Shown here piece after piece: positions 4,072-47,785 of a stretch of 64,000 nucleotides of DNA. The notes under the pieces were generated by a model. That model did no database searches. It was not told the DNA's origin and saw only the letters and a program-made list of their open reading frames with translations. Made by a program: the position numbers and the translations under genes. This DNA is from Gemmata massiliana (GTDB lineage Bacteria > Planctomycetota > Planctomycetia > Gemmatales > Gemmataceae), in the NCBI RefSeq assembly GCF_901538265.1, contig NZ_LR593886.1, positions 7,151,738 to 7,215,737 on the forward strand. Reading direction: 5' to 3'. Each line of letters opens with the position of its first letter. Position 1 is the stretch's first letter.

Positions 4072-4950
4072 TTACCAGTCCGACCCGAGAACCAAGCCGT
4101 CGTTCGGGAACATGGCAGCGTACCACGTGCTGCTGTTAATGGACGTGGAGACCGTGCGCACGCTCCCGTCGAACATCCCCACCTGGCACCCGCCCGCGTC
4201 CATCGCCTGGAGGTTCCACGGGTTGCAGTCGGCCACTTTGGGCATGTTCTGTGGCGTCGCGGACGGCGCGGTCCACTTCGGGGCGGTCCCGCTGCTGAGG
4301 TTGCCCGGGTGGAACAACGACCCGCGGTGCTCGTCCCACGGCGGGTAGTAGGCCCACAGTTTGCCCGTATCGGCGCACAGCCCGTACTGCTCGCCGAACG
4401 AGACGGTGTTGGACGTCCCGTCGCCGATCCCGGTGAGCTTGCGCTTCGGGTTCCACGTCACGTAGGGCTCGGTGAACACGGCCTCGTTGAAGGCGTAGTT
4501 GCTGATGCCCCACAGCAGGTGGGCCGTGGTCCACGGGTCGGTCCAGTAGTCGCCCGGGTTGGACGGGTCGCGCGGGGAGATGAACACTTTCACCTTTTGC
4601 GCCGCGGGGACGTCCGGGGTGATGCCGATCAGCCCGTTCTGCGAGGCGACACGGTACAAGTTGTCCTGTTCCAGGTACGGGAGCAGGAGCGTGTGAACCG
4701 AGGTCTGCCCGTTCCCGATGCCCCACGGGGTCGTGAGATTGTTGATCTTCCCGTCCACGTCCGGCAACTGGTTGTTGGCGTCGTGAAAACTGTGACAGGC
4801 GAGCGCGATTTGTTTCAAATTGTTCGCCGACTGCATCCGGGCCGCGGCCGCCCGAACCTTTTGGACCGCGGGGAGGAGAAGGCCAATGAGGATCGCGATA
4901 ATCGCAATCACCACCAACAGTTCAATGAGCGTGAACCCGCGACGACGCAT
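4072..4950 (-). CDS. DUF1559 protein with prepilin-type N-terminal methylation motif
   Basis: Planctomycete pseudopilin-like protein of 292 residues. The N-terminus [20 protein letters not shown] is a textbook type IV prepilin cleavage/methylation site (cleavage after G, then FTLIE) followed by the hydrophobic helix. The body shows the DUF1559 landmarks: [39 protein letters not shown] and a C-terminal [16 protein letters not shown]. These proteins occur in tens of copies per genome and probably form extracellular or periplasmic fibres; the substrate is not known. It probably forms an operon with the downstream lipoprotein. Confidence 0.92.
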
Positions 4951-5219
4951 GGGTCACTCCGGAAAAGGGAGAAAATGCAACTCCACCGCCTACTTACGGG
5001 CGGGGTACGAACGGTGATGTCCGATCTGGCTGAAGAGAGCGAGGCGAAAGGAACCGCTCTCCCGGGCAATTCACGGATAGGCGCGTCCGTGCCTGATAAA
5101 GCCAAACACCACAACAAGCTTATAATACCAACTCAGAGAGGCGATCCAACACACGCCGACAATAACGAGACGATTAAACCCGATGCTATCCTGCTACTTC
5201 TCACTTTTGAATTCTCGTC

Positions 5220-6839
5220 TCACTCAGCAAGTCCCAGAACTTTGATCCGCGACGCCAACGTGGTCGGCCTCACCCCGAGCAACTCGGCCGCCCCGCCCGG
5301 GCCGGACACTTTACCCTTCGTCTGGCGCAGCGCGACGCGGATGTTGTTCGCCTCCAGTTCTCGCACCTCGGCGTCGGTCAGCACGCGGTCCTCACTGCCC
5401 GCAGCAGGTACGGCAGCTGCTTTACTCGTGGTCCCGGGAGAACCGACGGGCAGATCGATGGTCAAACGAGAGCCGTCGGCCGTAATGACCGCGCGCTCGA
5501 TGACGTGCTGTAACTCGCGGACGTTCCCGGGCCAGTGGTACCTCTGAAGCTGCTGAACGTTCGCTAGCGTGAGTCGCGGTTTCGAGCGCCCGAGTTTGCG
5601 CGCGGTCAGCGCGAGAAAGTGCTCGGCCAATAGCGGAATATCTTCCCCGCGTTTACGGAGCGGCGGAAGCTCCACCGGGAACACACTCAACCGGTAGTAC
5701 AGATCTTGCCGGAACCGCCCGGCCTCGGCTTCGGCGCGGAGATCACGATTGGTGGCCGCAATGAGCCGCACGTTGATCTTGCGGGTGCGCTCTTCGCCCA
5801 CGCGCTCCAGTTCACCTTCCTGAAGCACGCGGAGCAATTTCGCCTGAAGTTCGAGCGGAATCTCTCCCACCTCGTCGAGGAACAGCGTTCCGCTGTCGGC
5901 CAACTCGAACCGCCCCGCCCGGTCGCGCAGCGCTCCTGTGAACGCCCCCTTCGCGTGGCCGAAAAACTCGCTCTCGTACAGTTCGCGCGGCACCGCGGCG
6001 CAGTTCACTTTGACGAGCGGGCGGGCCGATCGTTTGCTCCGACGGTGAACCTCACGCGCGACCAGTTCCTTTCCGGTACCGCTCTCGCCCAAAAGAAGAA
6101 CGGCCGAATCCGTTGGCGCGACCAAATCGATCTGGCGCGCAACCGCTTCGAGCGCGGGACCGCCCCCAACTAACTCGCCGAACGCGCCGGTCCGCGTCAC
6201 TTCTTCGCGCAGGTACTCGTTCTCCAGTTCCAGTTTGGCGCGTAACTCCTCGATCTGCTCGAACGCCCGCGCGGTCGCAATTGCGGCAGCAGTGTGGTCC
6301 GCGATGGTCCGGAGCCAACTCATGCACTCGGTGCCGATAGCTCCGCGTGCGAAGACGGCCAGCACACCGAGCACCTGACCGCGGTGAACGAGCGGCTGCC
6401 CGCCGAACCCCGCGATGCCCTCCGCACGCACCCACTCGGGCCGCGCGACCCATTCGGGCGGCTCGGGCGACGAAAGATTCGGCACCTCGATCGGTTCGCC
6501 AGTCGCCGCGATTCGTCCGACTTTGCGCACGCCGAGCGGAATGCGCCGAAACGCACCATCGAGCCGCGTCCATTCGACACGCGGATCAACCGCCGACCGC
6601 CCCGCACTGGCAACCAACTGGAGACACGTGGGGCGCCCGTTGCACTCGGTCGGCGTCAGACACTTCGCACAGTCCGCGGTCCGCTGCGCCAGCCAGATTC
6701 GCGCGAGAGCCACACGCGGAGTCTCCGCGGCGCGCTCAACCACCATCCGCAGTAGTTCCGGCAACCGGTGCTCACGAGCCATGTCGAGCAGCAGCCGCTT
6801 GGGATCAGCGAACAGCGGATTGGTACCGTCGGAATCCAT
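5220..6839 (-). CDS. Sigma-54-dependent transcriptional activator with N-terminal GAF domain
   Basis: Enhancer-binding protein of 539 residues. Residues about 20-190 form a GAF sensor domain containing four closely spaced cysteines (C57, C60, C66, C72), a possible metal or redox site. A short coiled coil (about 192-215) leads to the AAA+ domain: Walker A GESGTGKE at 251-258, the sigma-54 contact loop GAFTGA at 298-303, Walker [11 protein letters not shown] at 317-326. The last 40 residues form a Fis-type helix-turn-helix ([20 protein letters not shown]). It is transcribed divergently from the plus-strand operon starting at 7045. The 206-bp gap holds repeated CGAAA sites and a -24/-12-type promoter, so control of that operon is the straightforward inference. 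Architecture resembles FhlA/NorR-like regulators. Confidence 0.93.
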
Positions 6840-32749: not shown

Positions 32750-35641
32750 TTACTTACGCTTAACGTCCTTGATGTTGATGTCCGCCCCGGTTTGGCGATC
32801 GTTCAGCAAATTTTCTGCGAAGAAATCCCACATCCGCTGCGTGAAGTACGGCTGGGCGTTCCCGAAAGCGTGCCGGGCACCCGGGATCATCAGCATGTCG
32901 AACCGCTTGTTCGCCTTGATGAGCGCGTCCACGAGGCGCATCGTGTTGGCGGGGTGAACGTTGTTGTCGATCTCCCCGTGAACGAGCAGTAGGTGGCCCT
33001 TCAGGTTCGCGGCCAGTTCCGCATTCGTCGGAATGTGGATGTCGAACCGCATCGCCGGCAGCGTGACTGCCGGGAGCGCGGCCCCCGCCGGGCGCGGCGG
33101 CGGCGCTTGTTGCACCTGGGCCGCCGAGTTCTTGAGCGCGGCCAGTTTCGCGTTCAGTTCCGCGAGTTTGCGCTCCAAGTCCGCGACCGAGTCCTCGTTC
33201 CGCGGGTCGAACGAATCGAGGAGGTCTTCGAGTTCGGCTTCCAGCGCCTCCTCCGGCGTCGGACCCTTCTTGCGCCCGCCCGTTCCCTTCCCGAAGCCCT
33301 TTCCGCCCCCGGTGTTCGCGTCGGTCGCGGTGGTCGTGGCGGAAGTGCCCTTCCCGTCGCTGACCGGAACCTCTTTCAGACCGTGGTAGGTCTCGGACCA
33401 GTTGTCGTTGTAGATGTTGTTGTCGTGGTTACCGGCGCTGGCGACCGCGGCCTTGAAGAAGTCGTTGTAGGGTTTCTGCAGCACCGCCGCGGCCGACATG
33501 AACCCGCCGCCCGAGTGCCCGTAGATCCCCACGCGCTCGATATCGATAAAGCTGTGTCGCGCAGCGAGCGCTTCGAGGGCGGCTTTCTTGTCCACCAGCC
33601 CGTAGTCTCGGAGGTTGAAATAACCAAATGAGTGGTACGCCTTCGACCGCTCCGGGCTGCCGCCGCGGTGCCCCACTTGAATGACGATGAACCCGAGTTG
33701 CGCTAACTGCATCGTCTGACTGTGGGCCGAGAACCGGTACACGACGCCCTCGGTTTGCGGCCCCGGGTACACGTGGGCGATGATCGGGTACTTCTTCTTC
33801 GGGTCGAAGTCGAACGGCTTCCACATGTTCCCGTACAGATCGGTGACGCCGTCCGCGGCCTTCACCGTGAACGTTTCCGGCATCTGCCAGCCGGCCTTCT
33901 TGAGCGCGGACAGGTCGGTCGTCTCCAGCACCATCAGCACCTTACCGGCGTCGTCGCGGAGCGTGGCGAACGGCGCGCGATCCACGCGCGTGCTGTTGGT
34001 CACGACGAACTTCTTCGACGGCGACAGCGACGATGACTGGTTGAAGCCACTCAGGGGCGGCTTCTCGCTCCCTTCAACCGTAGTGGAGCCGGCCGAAGCC
34101 GCGGTCGGTTCCTCGCTCGGGTCGAGGCAGGTCAGGCCGGTGCCGTCGAGCTTCACGCGGTAGAGGTGCGTGTAGTAGAGGTTCTCGCCCGGTTCGCGCC
34201 CGTTGCCGATGATGTAAACGAACCCGGCCTTCGCATCGACCTCGACGATCCGGCTCGCGCGCCACGCGCCACTCGTTAGTGCGTTCTTGAACGTGCCGTC
34301 GCGCCCGTAGCGGTAGAAGTGGCCCCACCCGCTGCGCTCCGACCACCACACGAACTCGTCGGTTTCTTCGATGTAGCGCGGCGCCTGCATGTCGAGGTAC
34401 GCGGCGTCGAACGCCTCGTTCACGAGGCACTTGCACGTGCTGCTGAGCACATCGAACGCGCAGATTTCGAGGTTCCGCCGGAGCCGGTCGCGCCGGATGA
34501 ACCGCAGTTCGCCCGGGCTCTTCCCCCAGCGCAGGTCCGAGTACCGCTCGTCCTTCCACTTCGGCGTGATCCGCGTGAGCGTCTTGCTGTCGGCGACGCA
34601 GTAGTAGAGTTCCGTCTTTCGAACGAGTTCTTCGCCCGGCATCGGGTACTTGTACTGTTCGAGCTTGGGCCGCGGGTCGGCGATCGAGTCCACGAGGTAG
34701 AGGTCTTTTACCCCGCGGCTGTCGGACCGGGTGATGTAGAACGCCTTCGAGTCGGGTGACCACGTCACGTTGGGCCGCGTCTTGCGGTCCGTCGGGGTGG
34801 TGCCACCCTTCCCGGTGTTGTTCCCTTTTCCGAAGCCGCCGCCACCACCGCCACCGCCACCGAAGCCGCCCACGAACGTGTACTCTTCCGCGCCGTCGGT
34901 CGAGAGCTGCGTCGCCTTGTCTTCGGGCTGCCCCTCGTCGCAGAGGTAGAGGTTGTACTTCAGCAGGAAGACGTACTTCTTCTTGTCCGGCGAGTAGTTC
35001 TTGTACGCGGACGCCGGATCGGTCGGGTTCTTGGGCTGGTTCTCGCCCATCCCGCCCGTCCCGCCGCCCATGTCGTCCTTCTTCTGCTCGGTTTCGCCCT
35101 CGCGCAACCGGCGGAGCATCTCGTTCACGCGCTCGTCGCCGAGCTGCCCGCGCAGGCGCTCGATGGCTTCCGCGTTGAGGGGGCCGTTCCCGGGCGCGGA
35201 CGCCTTGCCGGTCGCCTTCAGCTTGTTCGCGCCCAGGTCGTACTCGTATTGGCCCTCACCGAACGCGAAGGTGAACTTCTTCCCGTCCGCCGCGACAACG
35301 ACGCGGTCCAGCCGGAGCGTGTCGCCGTCGAGCGGCTTCTTCGACGCTTCCGAGAGCGCCGCGGCCAGCACCACGTGATCGAACAGCGGCACCTTTTCCT
35401 TCTTCGTGGGGTCGACGCGCCAGTACCGGTTCCCGGTCGCGGTGCGGGCCGCGTACCAGAACGTGTCCGTCTTGCCGATCCACTGCGGCGCAACGGACGC
35501 TTCTTGAACGTTGCGCGTCACGAAGTCGCGATCGAACTTTTGAGCGAGGGGGTAATTCGCCCCGGTGATCCGCTCTTGAGCGGAAACGAGGGGAGCGAGC
35601 GCGATCACAACGATCGCGACAACCGCGTGGCAGCGAGTCAT
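32750..35641 (-). CDS. Secreted S9 prolyl oligopeptidase (DPP-IV-like) with an inserted coiled coil
   Basis: 963 residues. Signal peptide (MTRCHAVVAIVVIALAPLVS). Residues about 30-600 form the beta-propeller (TWSPDSKAFYITRSDSRGVK, WWSERSGWGHFYRYGRDG), the rest the alpha/beta hydrolase domain with catalytic Ser710 (GIYGHSGGGF), Asp892 (HGEIDNNVHP) and His924 (GARHAFG). Two glycine-rich, disorder-like tracts occur: one in the propeller (FGGGGGGGGGFGKGNNTGKG) and one in the hydrolase domain (GGGKGFGKGTGGRKKG). The second introduces about 90 extra residues (about 760-850), including an acidic coiled coil (EALEAELEDLLDSF, DLERKLAELNAKLAALK) between the Ser and Asp. The enzyme should cut proline-containing peptides outside the cytoplasm. 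Confidence 0.92.
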   Translation of the reverse strand: MTRCHAVVAIVVIALAPLVSAQERITGANYPLAQKFDRDFVTRNVQEASVAPQWIGKTDTFWYAARTATGNRYWRVDPTKKEKVPLFDHVVLAAALSEASKKPLDGDTLRLDRVVVAADGKKFTFAFGEGQYEYDLGANKLKATGKASAPGNGPLNAEAIERLRGQLGDERVNEMLRRLREGETEQKKDDMGGGTGGMGENQPKNPTDPASAYKNYSPDKKKYVFLLKYNLYLCDEGQPEDKATQLSTDGAEEYTFVGGFGGGGGGGGGFGKGNNTGKGGTTPTDRKTRPNVTWSPDSKAFYITRSDSRGVKDLYLVDSIADPRPKLEQYKYPMPGEELVRKTELYYCVADSKTLTRITPKWKDERYSDLRWGKSPGELRFIRRDRLRRNLEICAFDVLSSTCKCLVNEAFDAAYLDMQAPRYIEETDEFVWWSERSGWGHFYRYGRDGTFKNALTSGAWRASRIVEVDAKAGFVYIIGNGREPGENLYYTHLYRVKLDGTGLTCLDPSEEPTAASAGSTTVEGSEKPPLSGFNQSSSLSPSKKFVVTNSTRVDRAPFATLRDDAGKVLMVLETTDLSALKKAGWQMPETFTVKAADGVTDLYGNMWKPFDFDPKKKYPIIAHVYPGPQTEGVVYRFSAHSQTMQLAQLGFIVIQVGHRGGSPERSKAYHSFGYFNLRDYGLVDKKAALEALAARHSFIDIERVGIYGHSGGGFMSAAAVLQKPYNDFFKAAVASAGNHDNNIYNDNWSETYHGLKEVPVSDGKGTSATTTATDANTGGGKGFGKGTGGRKKGPTPEEALEAELEDLLDSFDPRNEDSVADLERKLAELNAKLAALKNSAAQVQQAPPPRPAGAALPAVTLPAMRFDIHIPTNAELAANLKGHLLLVHGEIDNNVHPANTMRLVDALIKANKRFDMLMIPGARHAFGNAQPYFTQRMWDFFAENLLNDRQTGADINIKDVKRK

Positions 35642-44756: not shown

Positions 44757-46355
44757 TCACTCCGTGCGCCGGGCCGGGAGCGGGTACTCCAGGATTTCCT
44801 GGAGCAGTTCCAGCTTGCTCGGGCGGGCGAGCAGCGGGACCAGGTTCGGCAGCGCGTAGTAGTCCCCGTTGAACTGGTAGGCGTCCACCGCGATCCCCGC
44901 CTTCTTGCACTCGTCCTCCAGTTGCGAGGTCGCCCCCGAAACCTTCACGAAGCAAACGGTCGGGTCCGCCTTCAGTTCCTCGCGGTACTTCTGCAGCGCC
45001 GGGACGAACCGCGGCTCCGCGTTCTCGCCCTCGTCCGTGACGATCACGATCTGCTCGACGAACTGCTTCTTCCGGCGCAGTTGGTCGATGCCCACCCCGA
45101 CCGAGGTGTTACCTCCGGCCGTGATGCCCGTGAGCGCCCGCTCCCACGCGGACAGTTCCGGCCCGGCCGATTCGACCGGGTACGCGATCGAGTCGAAGGC
45201 GTACACGAACAGCTCCTTGTCCGCGACCGCCGCCAACAGCGACCCGAGCCGCTTGCCGATCTCGATGGCTTGGCTCATCGAGCCGGACTTGTCGATCAGC
45301 AGCGCCGTCGGCCGCGCGATCCGCCCGCGCGCCTTGACCTGCGAGTCCGCGACCGCTTCGAGCTTCTGCCGGACCGCCGCGCTCACGGGGACCGACTCCA
45401 GCGCTTTCTCGGCCTTGAACGCGCTGACCCGAGTCGCCGTCTTCGCGGACTCCAGCTTCGACTCGATGAGCGCCTTCACGCCGGCGTCGTCGAACGCGCC
45501 GCGCTTCCGAAGCATCTCGAGGTTGTTGATGACCTCCTGCGGCGACATCCGGCCCACGAGCGCCGTCAACACCTTCGGGGTCGCCCCCTTCACCAGCCCG
45601 ATCGCCACCCGAAACGGGACGTTGTGGGCCGCGATGAGCTTGGCCTGCTCGTCCGCGGTCTCGGCCTTCGCCAGATCCTTCAGCCCCGCGAGCTTCGAGC
45701 CTTCCGGCGGGCGCTCGTCGAACAACACGGCCTGCGCACGCGGCCCCGGCTTGACGTGCAGAAGCGCGTAGAGCCGCTTCAGCGTCTTGCGCGCGGTGAT
45801 CGCGGTGGAATCGAACCAGTCGGCATCCGCCTCCCGCTCGCGCAGGTAGCGCACGACTTCCGTCTTCAGCGACCGCGGTACGTTCCGGAACAGCCCGAAG
45901 GTGTCCGTGAGCGTAACAGTTCCACCCTCTGCCATCTTCGGCTTGCCCGGCTTCTTGCCGCGCGCCGCCTTCCGGTCGACCTTCGGGCGGAACGCGGACG
46001 CCGGCACGTCGTCCGGCTTGCGGTCCACTTCGATCGCGACGTCTTCCTTGCGGCCGTGGATGAAGTCGATGACGCGGCCGACCTGGTACGGCGGCAGCTC
46101 GCGCAGCATCGCCAGACCGGTGTCGCGGTGCCCCGGGAAGTCGCTCAGCGCGAGCGTGACGATGAACATTTCCTTGTGGTCGCGCACGTCACCGTGGTCC
46201 GCGTACCACGCCGCGAGGCGCACGTAGAACCGCGGATCCTGCTTCACGAGCTCCGTGTGCAGCGGGTGAACCAAACCCAACCGCCGGTGTGGGCAGGTGA
46301 GGAGGCTGTTCAACATCGACAGCCGCAAATCCGCCTCGGTCTTCGTCATCGTCAT
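44757..46355 (-). CDS. rsr: Ro60 ortholog (TROVE domain plus von Willebrand A domain), Y RNA-binding protein
   Basis: 532 residues, the length of Deinococcus Rsr. Residues 1-340 are the HEAT-like TROVE ring (CPHRRLGLVHPLHTELVKQD, YADHGDVRDHKEMFIVTLAL, LRNVPRSLK-type FRNVPRSLKTEVVRYLRERE, AHNVPFRVAIGLVKGATPKV). Residues about 348-532 are a vWA domain with a complete MIDAS: DKSGS (355-359), T417 and D441 (VTDEGE). Ro60 proteins bind Y RNAs on the outer ring and 3' ends of misfolded RNAs through the hole; bacterial ones work with PNPase in RNA decay. The ATG at 46355 has a perfect AAGGAGG. Four tRNA-like RNA units lie directly upstream on the same strand. No RtcB or PNPase gene is in the window. 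Confidence 0.95.
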   Translation of the reverse strand: MTMTKTEADLRLSMLNSLLTCPHRRLGLVHPLHTELVKQDPRFYVRLAAWYADHGDVRDHKEMFIVTLALSDFPGHRDTGLAMLRELPPYQVGRVIDFIHGRKEDVAIEVDRKPDDVPASAFRPKVDRKAARGKKPGKPKMAEGGTVTLTDTFGLFRNVPRSLKTEVVRYLREREADADWFDSTAITARKTLKRLYALLHVKPGPRAQAVLFDERPPEGSKLAGLKDLAKAETADEQAKLIAAHNVPFRVAIGLVKGATPKVLTALVGRMSPQEVINNLEMLRKRGAFDDAGVKALIESKLESAKTATRVSAFKAEKALESVPVSAAVRQKLEAVADSQVKARGRIARPTALLIDKSGSMSQAIEIGKRLGSLLAAVADKELFVYAFDSIAYPVESAGPELSAWERALTGITAGGNTSVGVGIDQLRRKKQFVEQIVIVTDEGENAEPRFVPALQKYREELKADPTVCFVKVSGATSQLEDECKKAGIAVDAYQFNGDYYALPNLVPLLARPSKLELLQEILEYPLPARRTE

Positions 46356-46390: not shown

Positions 46391-46413
46391 AAAACGGCCG
46401 CTGACGCGGCCGT
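46391..46413 (-). terminator. Terminator between the last tRNA-like RNA and rsr
   Basis: ACGGCCGC, TGAC loop, GCGGCCGT, then TTTTCG on the minus strand. It ends the fourth RNA unit 36 nt before the rsr start codon, so rsr expression needs read-through or a promoter in this small space. Confidence 0.85.
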
Positions 46414-46593
46414 AAGAGATCCACCCGTACAAGTTCCACCGGCGAGTCCCATAAGGGACACTTTGCTGCTCCTCGCAGAGCGGCTGCCATCGACCACTCG
46501 GCCACTCCACCGTTAGAGGTGGAGGTGGGATTCGAACCCACGAATCGGTTGCCCGATTGCCGGTTCAAGACCGGAAAAGTGTGTACGCCGTTT
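46414..46593 (-). ncRNA. Y RNA-like (YrlA-type) unit 4: permuted Ser-like tRNA mimic
   Basis: Read on the minus strand. 5' flank GCGTACACAC (46579-46588); CCGGTCTTGAACCGG, close to the anticodon arm of tRNA-Ser(UGA); variable arm AATCGGGCAACCGATT (46543-46558, GCAA tetraloop); T-arm GTGGGTTCGAATCCCAC (46525-46541); acceptor 3' strand CTCCACC (46518-46524); 6-nt linker TCTAAC; acceptor 5' strand GGTGGAG (46505-46511, all 7 bp pair); D-arm GCCGAGTGGTCGATGGC; an extra GTCCC/GGGAC hairpin; 3' flank GAACTTGTACGGGTGG (46421-46436). The two flanks pair (GCGTAC with GTACG). It stands directly ahead of rsr and ends at its own terminator. The order T-arm, acceptor, D-arm is inverted compared with a tRNA gene. 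Confidence 0.8.
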
Positions 46594-46598
46594 GAGAT

Positions 46599-46604
46599 CG
46601 GATA
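46599..46604 (-). promoter_or_regulatory. Possible -10 element of RNA unit 4
   Basis: TATCCG on the minus strand, 17 nt after TTTCGA and about 10 nt before the conserved start region of the unit. Equivalent TACCCC boxes precede units 3 and 2. Confidence 0.3.
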
Positions 46605-46630
46605 CGGGTTGGTTTCAGTAGTCGAAAAAT

Positions 46631-46774
46631 ATCATCCGTACAAGTTCGGGAAGCGGTTCAACTTTTTATTCAGTGCGTTTGCCATTTCGCCACATCGCCC
46701 GTGCCCGGGCGACGGCGGGACTCGAACCCGCATACGCTTTCGCGTGCTGAATCTGAGGGTTTGTACGCTTTCCT
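46631..46774 (-). ncRNA. Y RNA-like unit 3: permuted Leu-like tRNA mimic
   Basis: Minus strand. Start region GGAAAGCGTACAAAC (flank GCGTACAAAC, 46759-46768); CTCAGATTCAG as 3' side of an anticodon-like stem; variable arm ACGCGAAAGCGT (46734-46745, GAAA tetraloop); T-arm GCGGGTTCGAGTCCCGC (46715-46731); acceptor 3' strand CGTCGCC (46708-46714); 8-nt linker CGGGCACG; acceptor 5' strand GGCGATG (46693-46699; 7 pairs, one G-U); TGGCG...CGC D-arm of Leu type; CTGAA pairing with TTCAG; 3' flank GAACTTGTACGGATG (46633-46647), complementary to the 5' flank over CGTACAA. Same permuted order as the other units. Confidence 0.8.
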
Positions 46775-46777
46775 TGT

Positions 46778-46783
46778 GGGGTA
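46778..46783 (-). promoter_or_regulatory. Possible -10 element of RNA unit 3
   Basis: TACCCC on the minus strand within CCGTACCCCAC, a block also found before unit 2; TTGTGA lies 19 nt upstream as a weak -35. Conservation between units is the main support. Confidence 0.3.
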
Positions 46784-46811
46784 CGGATTGTCTCTGAAGT
46801 AATCACAAAAT

Positions 46812-46942
46812 AAGCCCGTACGAGTTCGTGAAGCGGTGAAAACTTGATCCGAAGCTCTACCAACTGAGCTACCTCACGCTTTTGAGGGCGTGGGGGCAGG
46901 AGTCGAACCTGCGACCGTCGGGTTAACTGTTTGTACGCTTCC
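46812..46942 (-). ncRNA. Y RNA-like unit 2: permuted class I tRNA mimic
   Basis: Minus strand. GGAAGCGTACAAAC start region (flank 46929-46938); GTTAACCCGA, resembling the 3' side of a tRNA-Asn(GUU) anticodon arm; short variable loop; T-arm GCAGGTTCGACTCCTGC (46896-46912); acceptor 3' strand CCCCACG (46889-46895); 10-nt linker CCCTCAAAAG; acceptor 5' strand CGTGAGG (46872-46878; six of seven pairs, one A-C mismatch); D-arm GCTCAGTTGGTAGAGC; TCGG pairing with CCGA; 3' flank GAACTCGTACGGGC (46814-46827). A GG in the D-loop and TTCGA in the T-loop preserve the tRNA elbow contacts. Confidence 0.8.
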
Positions 46943-46947
46943 ACAGT

Positions 46948-46953
46948 GGGGTA
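46948..46953 (-). promoter_or_regulatory. Possible -10 element of RNA unit 2
   Basis: TACCCC on the minus strand, 18 nt after TTGCAC, in the same position as before unit 3. Confidence 0.3.
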
Positions 46954-46989
46954 CGGGCTGTACCCGAATAAGTGCAAGTGAACGCCGCG

Positions 46990-47121
46990 AGCGCGCCGCA
47001 CGAGTTGTGCGAGCAATTGGCACTGAGCGCTCTACCACTGAGCTATCCGCCCATAAGTGGACGGAACAGGAGTCGAACCTGTGACCTCTCCCTGAGCAAG
47101 GGATTGTGTTTGTACGCTCGT
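46990..47121 (-). ncRNA. Y RNA-like unit 1: permuted class I tRNA mimic
   Basis: Minus strand, first of the array. Flank GAGCGTACAAACAC (47106-47119); TCCCTTGCTCAGGGA hairpin ahead of the variable loop; T-arm ACAGGTTCGACTCCTGT (47066-47082); acceptor 3' strand TCCGTCC (47059-47065); 6-nt linker ACTTAT; acceptor 5' strand GGGCGGA (47046-47052; seven pairs, one G-U); D-arm GCTCAGTGGTAGAGC (47029-47043); 3' flank CACAACTCGTGCGG (46996-47009), which pairs with CGTAC through one G-U. The unit upstream lacks the CCGTACCCCAC block seen before units 2 and 3, so its promoter may differ. Confidence 0.78.
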
Positions 47122-47785
47122 CGCGTTGGGTGCGACCCGCTCGTGGCGTTCGGAATAATGGACAGAGACCAGCAAACGAGGTTCGCGAAATTCTCGGCAC
47201 GAATCCGCGGGGCAATTCACATCGGCGCAGGCGTGCCAGCGCTGACCGTATTATTCCGCCAACACCACTTGTAATCTTTTGTTCACTAGAATATAATTTA
47301 GCAAGTGCCGCCGGGCTGGGGTCGACTTCTGGGCGAACGGCCGGTGAACCCGCTAATCGCCGTTACCGCACTTAGCGCGGGAAGTGATTGTGGCTCTCAC
47401 CAGCCGTTCGCTCGAACCGGCGAACACGATGTGGCAGGATGTTAACCGTTGTTAGCAAGTCACGAGACAGGCACAACCACCGAAGGTTTTGTAGCACATG
47501 CAGTTAGCGCGAATCGCGTCCGGTGAAGACGCGGGGGGCAAGTTGCGAGCGTTTGTTAGCGTGGGTTGCGCGTCGCGTGGATCGGCGGCGGGCGCTCGGA
47601 CGGGATCAAGCAGGAGGTGAAGTAGGCGCGCTTCGATTGGGTCTGGCGCGACGATCGCCGGTCCCGAGGGGTAAGGCGATGGTTCGCGATTCAGCAGGGG
47701 CACTTGCAGCTACAGTTTGAATGCTGGAACCGAACTCGTGCCCGTTTTGCTATCACGGTCTTCGGTAAGGTGCGTTCGCGTTCGA
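47122..47785. other. Gap upstream of the RNA array; no gene seen
   Basis: About 660 bp. Short open frames exist (for example around 47452-47703 minus) but have no ribosome-binding site or recognisable product. It should contain the promoter of RNA unit 1. I see no fifth T-arm or D-arm here. Confidence 0.5.

What the first reader, a model, noticed from the sequence alone, without database searches (positions are those of the whole stretch)
46505..46774. Two of the Y RNA-like units mimic class II tRNAs (Leu- and Ser-type) with GNRA-capped variable arms
Unit 3 has ACGC-GAAA-GCGT and unit 4 has AATCGG-GCAA-CCGATT exactly where the long variable arm of Leu/Ser tRNAs lies, plus D-arms of the Leu/Ser type. 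Unit 4 also retains CCGGTCTTGAACCGG, close to a bacterial tRNA-Ser(UGA) anticodon arm, and unit 2 GTTAACCCGA resembles tRNA-Asn(GUU). This suggests several independent captures of real tRNA genes into a Y RNA frame, rather than duplication of one mimic. I know of Y RNA mimics mainly as class I-like, so a class II type would be new to me.
Basis: partly seen in the sequence, partly recalled or inferred. Interest (0 to 1): 0.75.

Follow-up and report, generated by a model that had tools for sequence, protein, structure and literature searches.

The report
Y RNAs mimicking leucine/serine tRNAs
Next to a bacterial Ro60 gene lies a row of four small RNA genes shaped like tRNAs cut open and re-joined in swapped order, and two of them copy the long-armed leucine and serine tRNAs, a form that the reference model of this RNA family lacks.

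Summary
On the minus strand, 47155-46415, lie four circularly permuted tRNA-like modules, each closed by a Y-RNA-type stem and followed by a divergent Ro60/Rsr gene (46355-44757; its 13 best structural matches are all Ro60/TROVE). Units 3 and 4 have hairpins in the variable-arm position. Both arms recur in relatives: unit 4 has compensatory changes at 5 of 6 pairs (12 sequences), unit 3 at 1 of 4 (7 sequences). Against 46 canonical host tRNAs, unit 3's D region is closest to the four tRNA-Leu; unit 4's is closest to tRNA-Ser(UGA), whose anticodon arm it matches 15/15 with two loop bases lost. A tree puts unit-3 copies with tRNA-Leu (93/94.6); one origin for all units costs 51 log units but is not formally rejected (p 0.059). 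Unit 2 as tRNA-Asn is not supported. Class II units occur in 14 of 95 family genomes and in two genomes of other planctomycete families. Circular permutation is already known for bacterial Y RNA. New here: class II modules, a stem inserted between D and anticodon arms, and varied tRNA pieces in one frame. Ro60 binding and function are inferred. Verdict: new variant of a known kind.

The parts
46985..47155 (-). Y RNA-like unit 1: permuted class I module with a whole 17-nt anticodon arm (47104-47088), 5-nt variable region, T arm 47082-47066, acceptor hairpin 47065-47046, D arm 47043-47029
   Evidence: Rfam YrlA 37.6 bits, E 1.7e-6, below gathering 69
46805..46960 (-). Y RNA-like unit 2: permuted class I module split inside the anticodon loop (GTTAACCCGA 46927-46918)
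   Evidence: Rfam YrlA 36.7 bits, E 3.1e-6, below gathering
46625..46790 (-). Y RNA-like unit 3: permuted class II, tRNA-Leu-type module
   Evidence: Rfam YrlA only 17.2 bits
46734..46745 (-). unit 3 variable arm ACGC-GAAA-GCGT
   Evidence: 4 bp, 100% of cells paired in 7 sequences, 1 pair with a double change, 3 invariant
46675..46691 (-). unit 3 D arm of Leu type
   Evidence: top 4 of 46 canonical host tRNAs by D region are the 4 tRNA-Leu
46415..46612 (-). Y RNA-like unit 4: permuted class II, tRNA-Ser-type module with anticodon-arm hairpin kept; Y stem inserted between D arm and anticodon arm
   Evidence: Rfam YrlA only 19.2 bits
46560..46574 (-). unit 4 anticodon arm CCGGT-CTTGA-ACCGG (loop 2 nt shorter than a tRNA's)
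   Evidence: 15/15 to host tRNA-Ser(UGA); 9 of the 12 aligned copies have such an arm, loop triplet differs
46543..46558 (-). unit 4 variable arm AATCGG-GCAA-CCGATT
   Evidence: 6 bp, 97.1% of cells paired in 12 sequences, 5 of 6 pairs with double changes
46446..46481 (-). two extra hairpins on the 3' side of the Y stem of unit 4 (46481-46468, 46459-46446), in relatives often GNRA-capped; not present as a pair in every relative
   Evidence: by reading
46391..46413 (-). terminator-like hairpin and T run between unit 4 and the Ro60 gene
   Evidence: 3 such sites found in the stretch, 1.6 expected
44757..46355 (-). divergent Ro60/Rsr protein (helical repeats plus vWA), P0001
   Evidence: Foldseek top 13 PDB hits all Ro60/Rsr/TROVE, E 1.9e-12 to 5.7e-10; model pLDDT 79, pTM 0.63; Pfam TROVE not listed

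Best explanation
An array of four Y RNAs belongs to the Ro60/Rsr gene just downstream. Each RNA has a shared frame: a 5' strand (variants of CCGTACCC.AC...AGCGTACAAAC) pairs with a 3' strand (variants of ACTTGTACGG) to form the presumed Ro60-binding stem. The far end carries a tRNA body in circularly permuted order, with the acceptor stem closed by a short loop and the Y stem inserted in or beside the anticodon arm. Units 1 and 2 carry class I bodies. Unit 3 carries a body derived from tRNA-Leu and unit 4 one derived from tRNA-Ser, both with long variable arms. Shown by computation: anatomy, conservation, covariation, tRNA similarity and linkage to Ro60. Inferred: the bodies came from separate tRNA genes; the stem is held by Ro60; the tRNA-like end docks the complex on proteins that bind the tRNA elbow (PNPase-type effectors, tRNA-modifying enzymes); the class II units widen that set of partners. 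They are unlikely to serve as tRNAs (no free acceptor end, interrupted or shortened anticodon loops). The confidence given is for what the units are and descend from; for the docking role alone I would say about 0.35.
For: 4 of 4 rotated units are called tRNAs, 0 of 200 shuffles each; strict scan 4 in the window, 0 in 20 shuffled windows. Variable arms conserved and covarying. Leu/Ser similarity to host tRNAs; unit-3 copies with tRNA-Leu on one branch 93/94.6, and a Ser-type plus tRNA-Ser/Tyr clade has higher likelihood than the free tree. The 14 family genomes with a class II unit (12 with model R1, 10 with R2, of 95) are all among the 24 of 95 that encode a P0001 relative. P0001 has the Ro60 fold. 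Units 1 and 2 match Rfam YrlA over the tRNA-like part. Known YrlA is a circular permutation of tRNA (PMC11472068, passages) and binds Rsr with its stem and PNPase with its tRNA-like end (PMC8394870, passages).
Against: No RNA-seq, binding or probing data. The D stem is only 3 bp and weakly predicted (0.28 unit 3, 0.12 unit 4). The window copy of unit 4 has a competing fold 2.5 kcal/mol lower. In the unit-3 alignment the number of double-changed pairs is reached in 33 of 500 shuffles, and the number of pair types in 414 of 500; only cells paired, cells double-changed and the covariation score beat all shuffles. The frame differs from that of YrlA and no unit reaches Rfam's gathering score. Single origin of all units not formally rejected (p 0.059). 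Tandem tRNA-Ser genes score well with model R1, so bits alone do not identify such units.
Confidence: 0.8

Rival explanations
1. One ancestral class I Y RNA duplicated, and two copies converged on class II shape because a long arm was useful; no tRNA genes were captured.
For: The units share one frame and orientation; one clade of all units is not formally rejected (p-AU 0.059), nor Leu- plus Ser-type as one clade (p 0.149).
Against: 51 log units worse; isotype-specific D regions (6 of 6 Leu-type, 11 of 12 Ser-type); anticodon arm 15/15 to tRNA-Ser(UGA); unit 2 of relative G010, its two strands joined, has an anticodon arm 16/17 to the window genome's tRNA-Lys(UUU), next best 12 (but its D region is nearest to Trp); insertion points differ (in the anticodon loop in units 2-3, before the anticodon arm in units 1 and 4, after it in L100).
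Confidence: 0.15
2. The class II units are decoys for an anticodon nuclease or another isotype-specific tRNA-attacking enzyme rather than adaptors for Ro60 partners.
For: Anticodon arms with 7-nt loops survive in many class I and Ser-type copies; a role as competitive inhibitor of an anticodon nuclease was proposed for YrlA's tRNA-like domain (PMC7790460, passages).
Against: The anticodon triplet is not kept: Ser-type copies show CGA, CCA, CAA, GAA, TTT and a shortened TGA loop; class I copies CAT, GAT, GTT, TTT, CGA, TCG, GCT and others.
Confidence: 0.12
3. These are true circularly permuted tRNA genes that mature into working tRNA-Ser and tRNA-Leu.
For: Permuted order and near-complete bodies; permuted tRNA genes exist in algae and archaea (PMC3978253, passages).
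Against: Normal tRNA-Ser and tRNA-Leu genes are present in the genome; the window unit 4 anticodon loop has 5 nt; acceptor loops of 3-17 nt hold no CCA in 45 of 45 units; the joint carries a conserved frame. A bulge-helix-bulge motif was not looked for.
Confidence: 0.02

Closest known systems
Bacterial Y RNA, YrlA type (Rfam RF02553; Salmonella YrlA, PDB 6CU1)
   Same: Beside a Ro60 gene; end-to-end stem; circularly permuted tRNA-like module with D, T and acceptor arms
   Different: Rfam's consensus has a 4-nt variable region (alignment); units 3 and 4 have hairpin variable arms; frame motif differs; units 1 and 4 keep an anticodon arm, with the stem inserted before it
tRNA-Leu and tRNA-Ser (class II tRNAs)
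   Same: D-arm type, long variable arm, T arm, 7-bp acceptor, Ser anticodon arm in unit 4
   Different: Permuted order, closed acceptor end, no CCA, interrupted or shortened anticodon loop
Circularly permuted tRNA genes of algae and archaea
   Same: 3' half precedes 5' half; [quoted passage not shown]
   Different: Carry a conserved frame at the joint, and no route to a tRNA was found here
tmRNA
   Same: Partial tRNA mimic, known also from permuted two-piece genes (PMC3978253, passages)
   Different: No tag reading frame or charged end is expected here; recalled, not tested

Membership tests
Bacterial Y RNA (broad sense) | Gene lies next to a Ro60/Rsr gene | tested here: met
   Unit 4 ends about 60 bases before the start codon of P0001, which has the Ro60 fold
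Bacterial Y RNA (broad sense) | 5' and 3' ends pair into a long stem | tested here: met
   Folds of the 4 units and of several relatives; recurrent frame motif
Bacterial Y RNA (broad sense) | Circularly permuted tRNA-like module in at least one unit | tested here: met
   4 of 4 rotated units called tRNA, 0 of 200 shuffles each
Bacterial Y RNA (broad sense) | Bound by Ro60 | not testable with these tools
   Needs pull-down
Rfam YrlA RF02553 | Gathering score 69 bits | tested here: not met
   37.6, 36.7, 19.2 and 17.2 bits for units 1, 2, 4, 3
Rfam YrlA RF02553 | Short (class I) variable region | tested here: not met
   Met by units 1 and 2, not by 3 and 4
Class II tRNA (Leu, Ser) as ancestry | Isotype-specific D region, long variable arm | tested here: met
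Class II tRNA gene (working) | Natural order, free acceptor end, 7-nt anticodon loop | tested here: not met
tRNA-Asn ancestry of unit 2 | Closer to tRNA-Asn than to tRNAs in general | tested here: not met
   0.54 vs mean 0.63
Ro60/Rsr (the protein) | Helical-repeat ring plus vWA fold | tested here: met
   Pfam TROVE profile itself not matched

The most novel reading that the evidence does not exclude
The Ro60-binding Y frame is a general socket that has repeatedly captured tRNA modules: permuted class I, permuted Leu and Ser, an anticodon arm alone, or a tRNA body in natural order without acceptor stem. One Ro60 protein thereby gets a set of isotype-specific tRNA-like hands that steer it to different tRNA-handling proteins or shield it from tRNA-attacking ones.
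Probability: 0.3. Interest if true: 0.85.

Novelty: new variant of a known kind. Interest (0 to 1): 0.62.

Why it matters
What the tRNA-like end of bacterial Y RNAs is for is still under study. Arrays that hold several different tRNA mimics side by side, two of them class II, let one ask directly which tRNA-binding proteins the modules recruit, because (from general knowledge) class II arms are read by only a few enzymes. The varied insertion points and drifting anticodon triplets show which tRNA features are kept and which are free, and give a worked case of tRNA genes turned into a modular regulatory RNA.

Tried and rejected
tRNA-Asn origin of unit 2: rejected. Anticodon triplet as an isotype marker: rejected for class I units and unit 4, since it differs between relatives while stems stay alike. 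R1 (Ser-type model) as a phylum-wide detector: rejected; 288 of 294 genomes match at E 0.001, and of the 29 best foreign loci 28 hold two tandem tRNA-Ser genes and one (L137) a tRNA array whose printed list was cut at 8. That suggested an origin from the junction of tandem tRNA genes, but the host's four canonical tRNA-Ser genes lie far apart, so it stays a guess. R2 phylum hits (8 of 392, own included): of the 7 foreign genomes, G275 and G314 have class II units with GNRA-capped arms (G314's D arm is not clearly Leu-type), G397 has a Leu-type D arm without a clear variable arm, G103 and G283 look class I, G149 is tandem tRNA-Leu, and for G159 nothing was printed, so it was not read. Whether a Ro60 gene lies beside the G275 and G314 units was not checked. 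Frame pattern in 392 phylum genomes: own only; I saw no other genome of the window's family in that draw, so this says only that the exact motif is rare outside the family. Papers: Chen 2014, Wang 2018 and the Sim and Wolin review are not held, so what they say of variable arms is unknown to me. Searches (0 papers; 1; 12 of 16 listed) show, by title and start of abstract, no paper on class II Y RNA mimics. Pfam on P0001 gave nothing over cut-off; the fold search settled it. ARAGORN's tRNA-Cys at 33076 lies in GC-rich sequence and is not an Rfam hit at gathering: taken as false.

Rows dropped: 10 duplicate loci before the 45-unit set (L066 was kept and its duplicate L087 dropped), 41 distinct bodies used; 1 identical Leu-type row (L080) from A2; L100_736 (Ser-like, no variable arm) left out of A1; 39 of 86 distinct host tRNAs (two clusters of odd tRNAs and other loci I judged odd) and one without a parsed T loop left out of the 'canonical' tests (the rankings printed there include the odd ones, marked; unit 3's four Leu stay on top); 45 used after leaving out selenocysteine tRNA; L064 left out of A3 after a stop-codon error.

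Full report
Setting. The window lies in a 10.1-Mb single-contig genome; the nearest named relative of the neighbouring protein is in Gemmata sp. IIL30, 99% identical. On the minus strand, 47155 to 46415, are four units followed by a terminator-like hairpin and, from 46355, the open reading frame P0001. Pfam names nothing in P0001 over cut-off, but a model built from 12 orthologues (pLDDT 79, pTM 0.63) has Ro60, Rsr or TROVE structures as its 13 best PDB matches, E 1.9e-12 to 5.7e-10. It is a divergent Ro60.

Anatomy. In transcription order each unit reads: Y-stem 5' strand, tRNA 3' half (anticodon-stem 3' strand or whole arm, variable region, T arm, acceptor 3' strand), short loop, tRNA 5' half (acceptor 5' strand, D arm, sometimes anticodon-stem 5' strand), Y-stem 3' strand. 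Rotated at the acceptor loop, 4 of 4 are called tRNAs with an intron in the anticodon loop, against 0 of 200 shuffles of each. The names ARAGORN gives (Trp, Stop, Leu, Arg) rest on the loop triplet and are not evidence of isotype. The strict permuted scan gives 4 hits in the window and 0 in 20 shuffled windows. Units 2 and 3 are split in the anticodon loop; units 1 and 4 keep the anticodon arm as a hairpin on the 3' half, so their Y stem sits between D arm and anticodon arm. Unit 4 has two more hairpins on the 3' side of the stem; the fold of the G010 relative shows the whole design as its minimum-energy structure.

Are the variable arms real? Across 12 unit-4 copies the 6-bp arm is paired in 97.1% of cells with double changes at 5 pairs; over the four helices 99.2% are paired, 10 pairs have double changes (0 of 500 shuffles), and slid controls pair 34-53%. 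The unit-3 arm (4 bp, 7 sequences) is paired in 100%, with one double-changed and three invariant pairs, so its own covariation is thin; its anticodon stem has double changes at 5 of 5 pairs. For the unit-3 structure as a whole the count of double-changed pairs (9) is reached in 33 of 500 shuffles and the count of pair types in 414, while the covariation score beats all 500. Many changes are shared by related sequences and are not independent events. Pair probabilities of the two arms are high, but window unit 4 has a rival fold 2.5 kcal/mol lower that undoes its T and anticodon arms.

Which tRNAs? With 46 canonical host tRNAs (of 86 distinct found), unit 3's D region ranks Leu(CAA), Leu(CAG), Leu(GAG), Leu(UAG) first (0.80-0.89; others mean 0.56, p 5e-4). 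Unit 4's best is Ser(UGA) at 0.90 (Ser mean 0.84, others 0.63, p 7e-4), and its anticodon arm matches that tRNA 15/15 with two loop bases missing. Units 1 and 2 show no single isotype. Over 41 distinct unit bodies the nearest host D region is Leu only for 6 of 6 Leu-type, includes Ser for 11 of 12 Ser-type (10 Ser/Tyr only; L100 is nearest to Cys), and is never Leu, Ser or Tyr for 23 class I units. On a tree of 51 columns the Leu-type units and tRNA-Leu are one side of a branch (93/94.6). Holding Ser-type units with tRNA-Ser/Tyr raises the likelihood by 7. Holding all units together lowers it by 51 (p-AU 0.059), and holding Leu- with Ser-type together lowers it by 20 (p 0.149). Separate captures are the better reading, not a proven one.

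Spread. A P0001 relative is found in 24 of 95 family genomes, the Ser-type unit in 12 of 95, the Leu-type in 10 of 95, both at E 1e-11; the union is 14, all among the 24. One, G043, has its Leu-type unit on another contig than its P0001 hits. Outside the family, class II units that match the Leu-type model, with GNRA-capped arms, appear in G275 (GATC-GGAA-GATC, Leu-type D arm) and G314 (GCCGC-GCAA-GCGGC, D arm less clear), in arrays whose frame resembles that of the Rfam YrlA hits of the same loci. The 30 YrlA-hit loci fetched were scanned: of 44 permuted units found, 41 have a class I-type start of the D region (TA at positions 8-9), 2 a Leu-type one (L190, L193) and 1 (L168) is a misregister; the G314 unit was found by the model, not by this scan.

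Modularity. In a deltaproteobacterial relative (L064) similar frames hold an anticodon arm alone or a D-anticodon-variable-T body in natural order without acceptor stem; L067 holds a permuted class I unit and a natural-order one; L095 shows neither D nor T arm (by reading and single-sequence folds). L100 has a Ser-like unit with the anticodon arm on the 5' half and no variable arm. In G010, the two strands of unit 2 joined give an anticodon arm 16/17 to the window genome's tRNA-Lys(UUU), though its D region is nearest to Trp. Anticodon triplets differ among relatives while stems stay alike, which speaks against decoding and against a decoy for one anticodon nuclease.

How it works (inference). 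By analogy with YrlA, whose stem holds Rsr and whose tRNA-like end binds PNPase (PMC8394870, passages), the units should tether this Ro60 to proteins that grip the tRNA elbow; class II arms would add partners that read long variable arms. The decoy idea comes from PMC7790460 (passages). None of this is shown here.

Known or new. Circular permutation of tRNA in bacterial Y RNA is known (PMC11472068, passages). Chen 2014 and Wang 2018 could not be read. Searches list no paper on class II Y RNA mimics in the held library (titles and starts of abstracts seen). I file the array as bacterial Y RNAs in the broad sense, not as Rfam YrlA members (gathering score not reached), with the class II modules as a new variant.

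Noticed in passing
L064 5182-5905, L067 about 4860-4980: Y-type frames in Desulfobacterota relatives hold an anticodon arm alone (CTGACTGTAAATCAG) or a tRNA body in natural order without acceptor stem, beside permuted units.
   Followed up: partly
L078 (own genome C1:4092000-4101000), minus strand about 5511-5595: Near a second TROVE gene of the same genome lies one permuted class I unit with a TTT-bearing 7-nt anticodon loop.
   Followed up: partly
L110-L138 (best foreign R1 hits): Junctions of tandem tRNA-Ser genes look like permuted Ser-type units: a possible one-step route from tandem tRNA genes to a permuted module, and a trap for covariance-model searches.
   Followed up: partly
own genome C1:8287900-8289000 and 8388800-8391500 (L048, L053): Two dense clusters of mostly low-scoring, odd tRNAs, including second copies of many isotypes.
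   Followed up: no
L098 (genome G010) unit 2: Joined anticodon arm matches the window genome's tRNA-Lys(UUU) 16/17, next best 12, unlike the window's unit 2: a possible recent recapture, though its D region is nearest to Trp.
   Followed up: partly
window 33076-33177: ARAGORN tRNA-Cys call in GC-rich sequence, not an Rfam match at gathering; probably false.
   Followed up: yes
IMG/VR loci L162-L166: Five viral contigs encode P0001 relatives (47-55% identity); one (L164, 2709) shows a permuted unit next to a Y-type frame.
   Followed up: no
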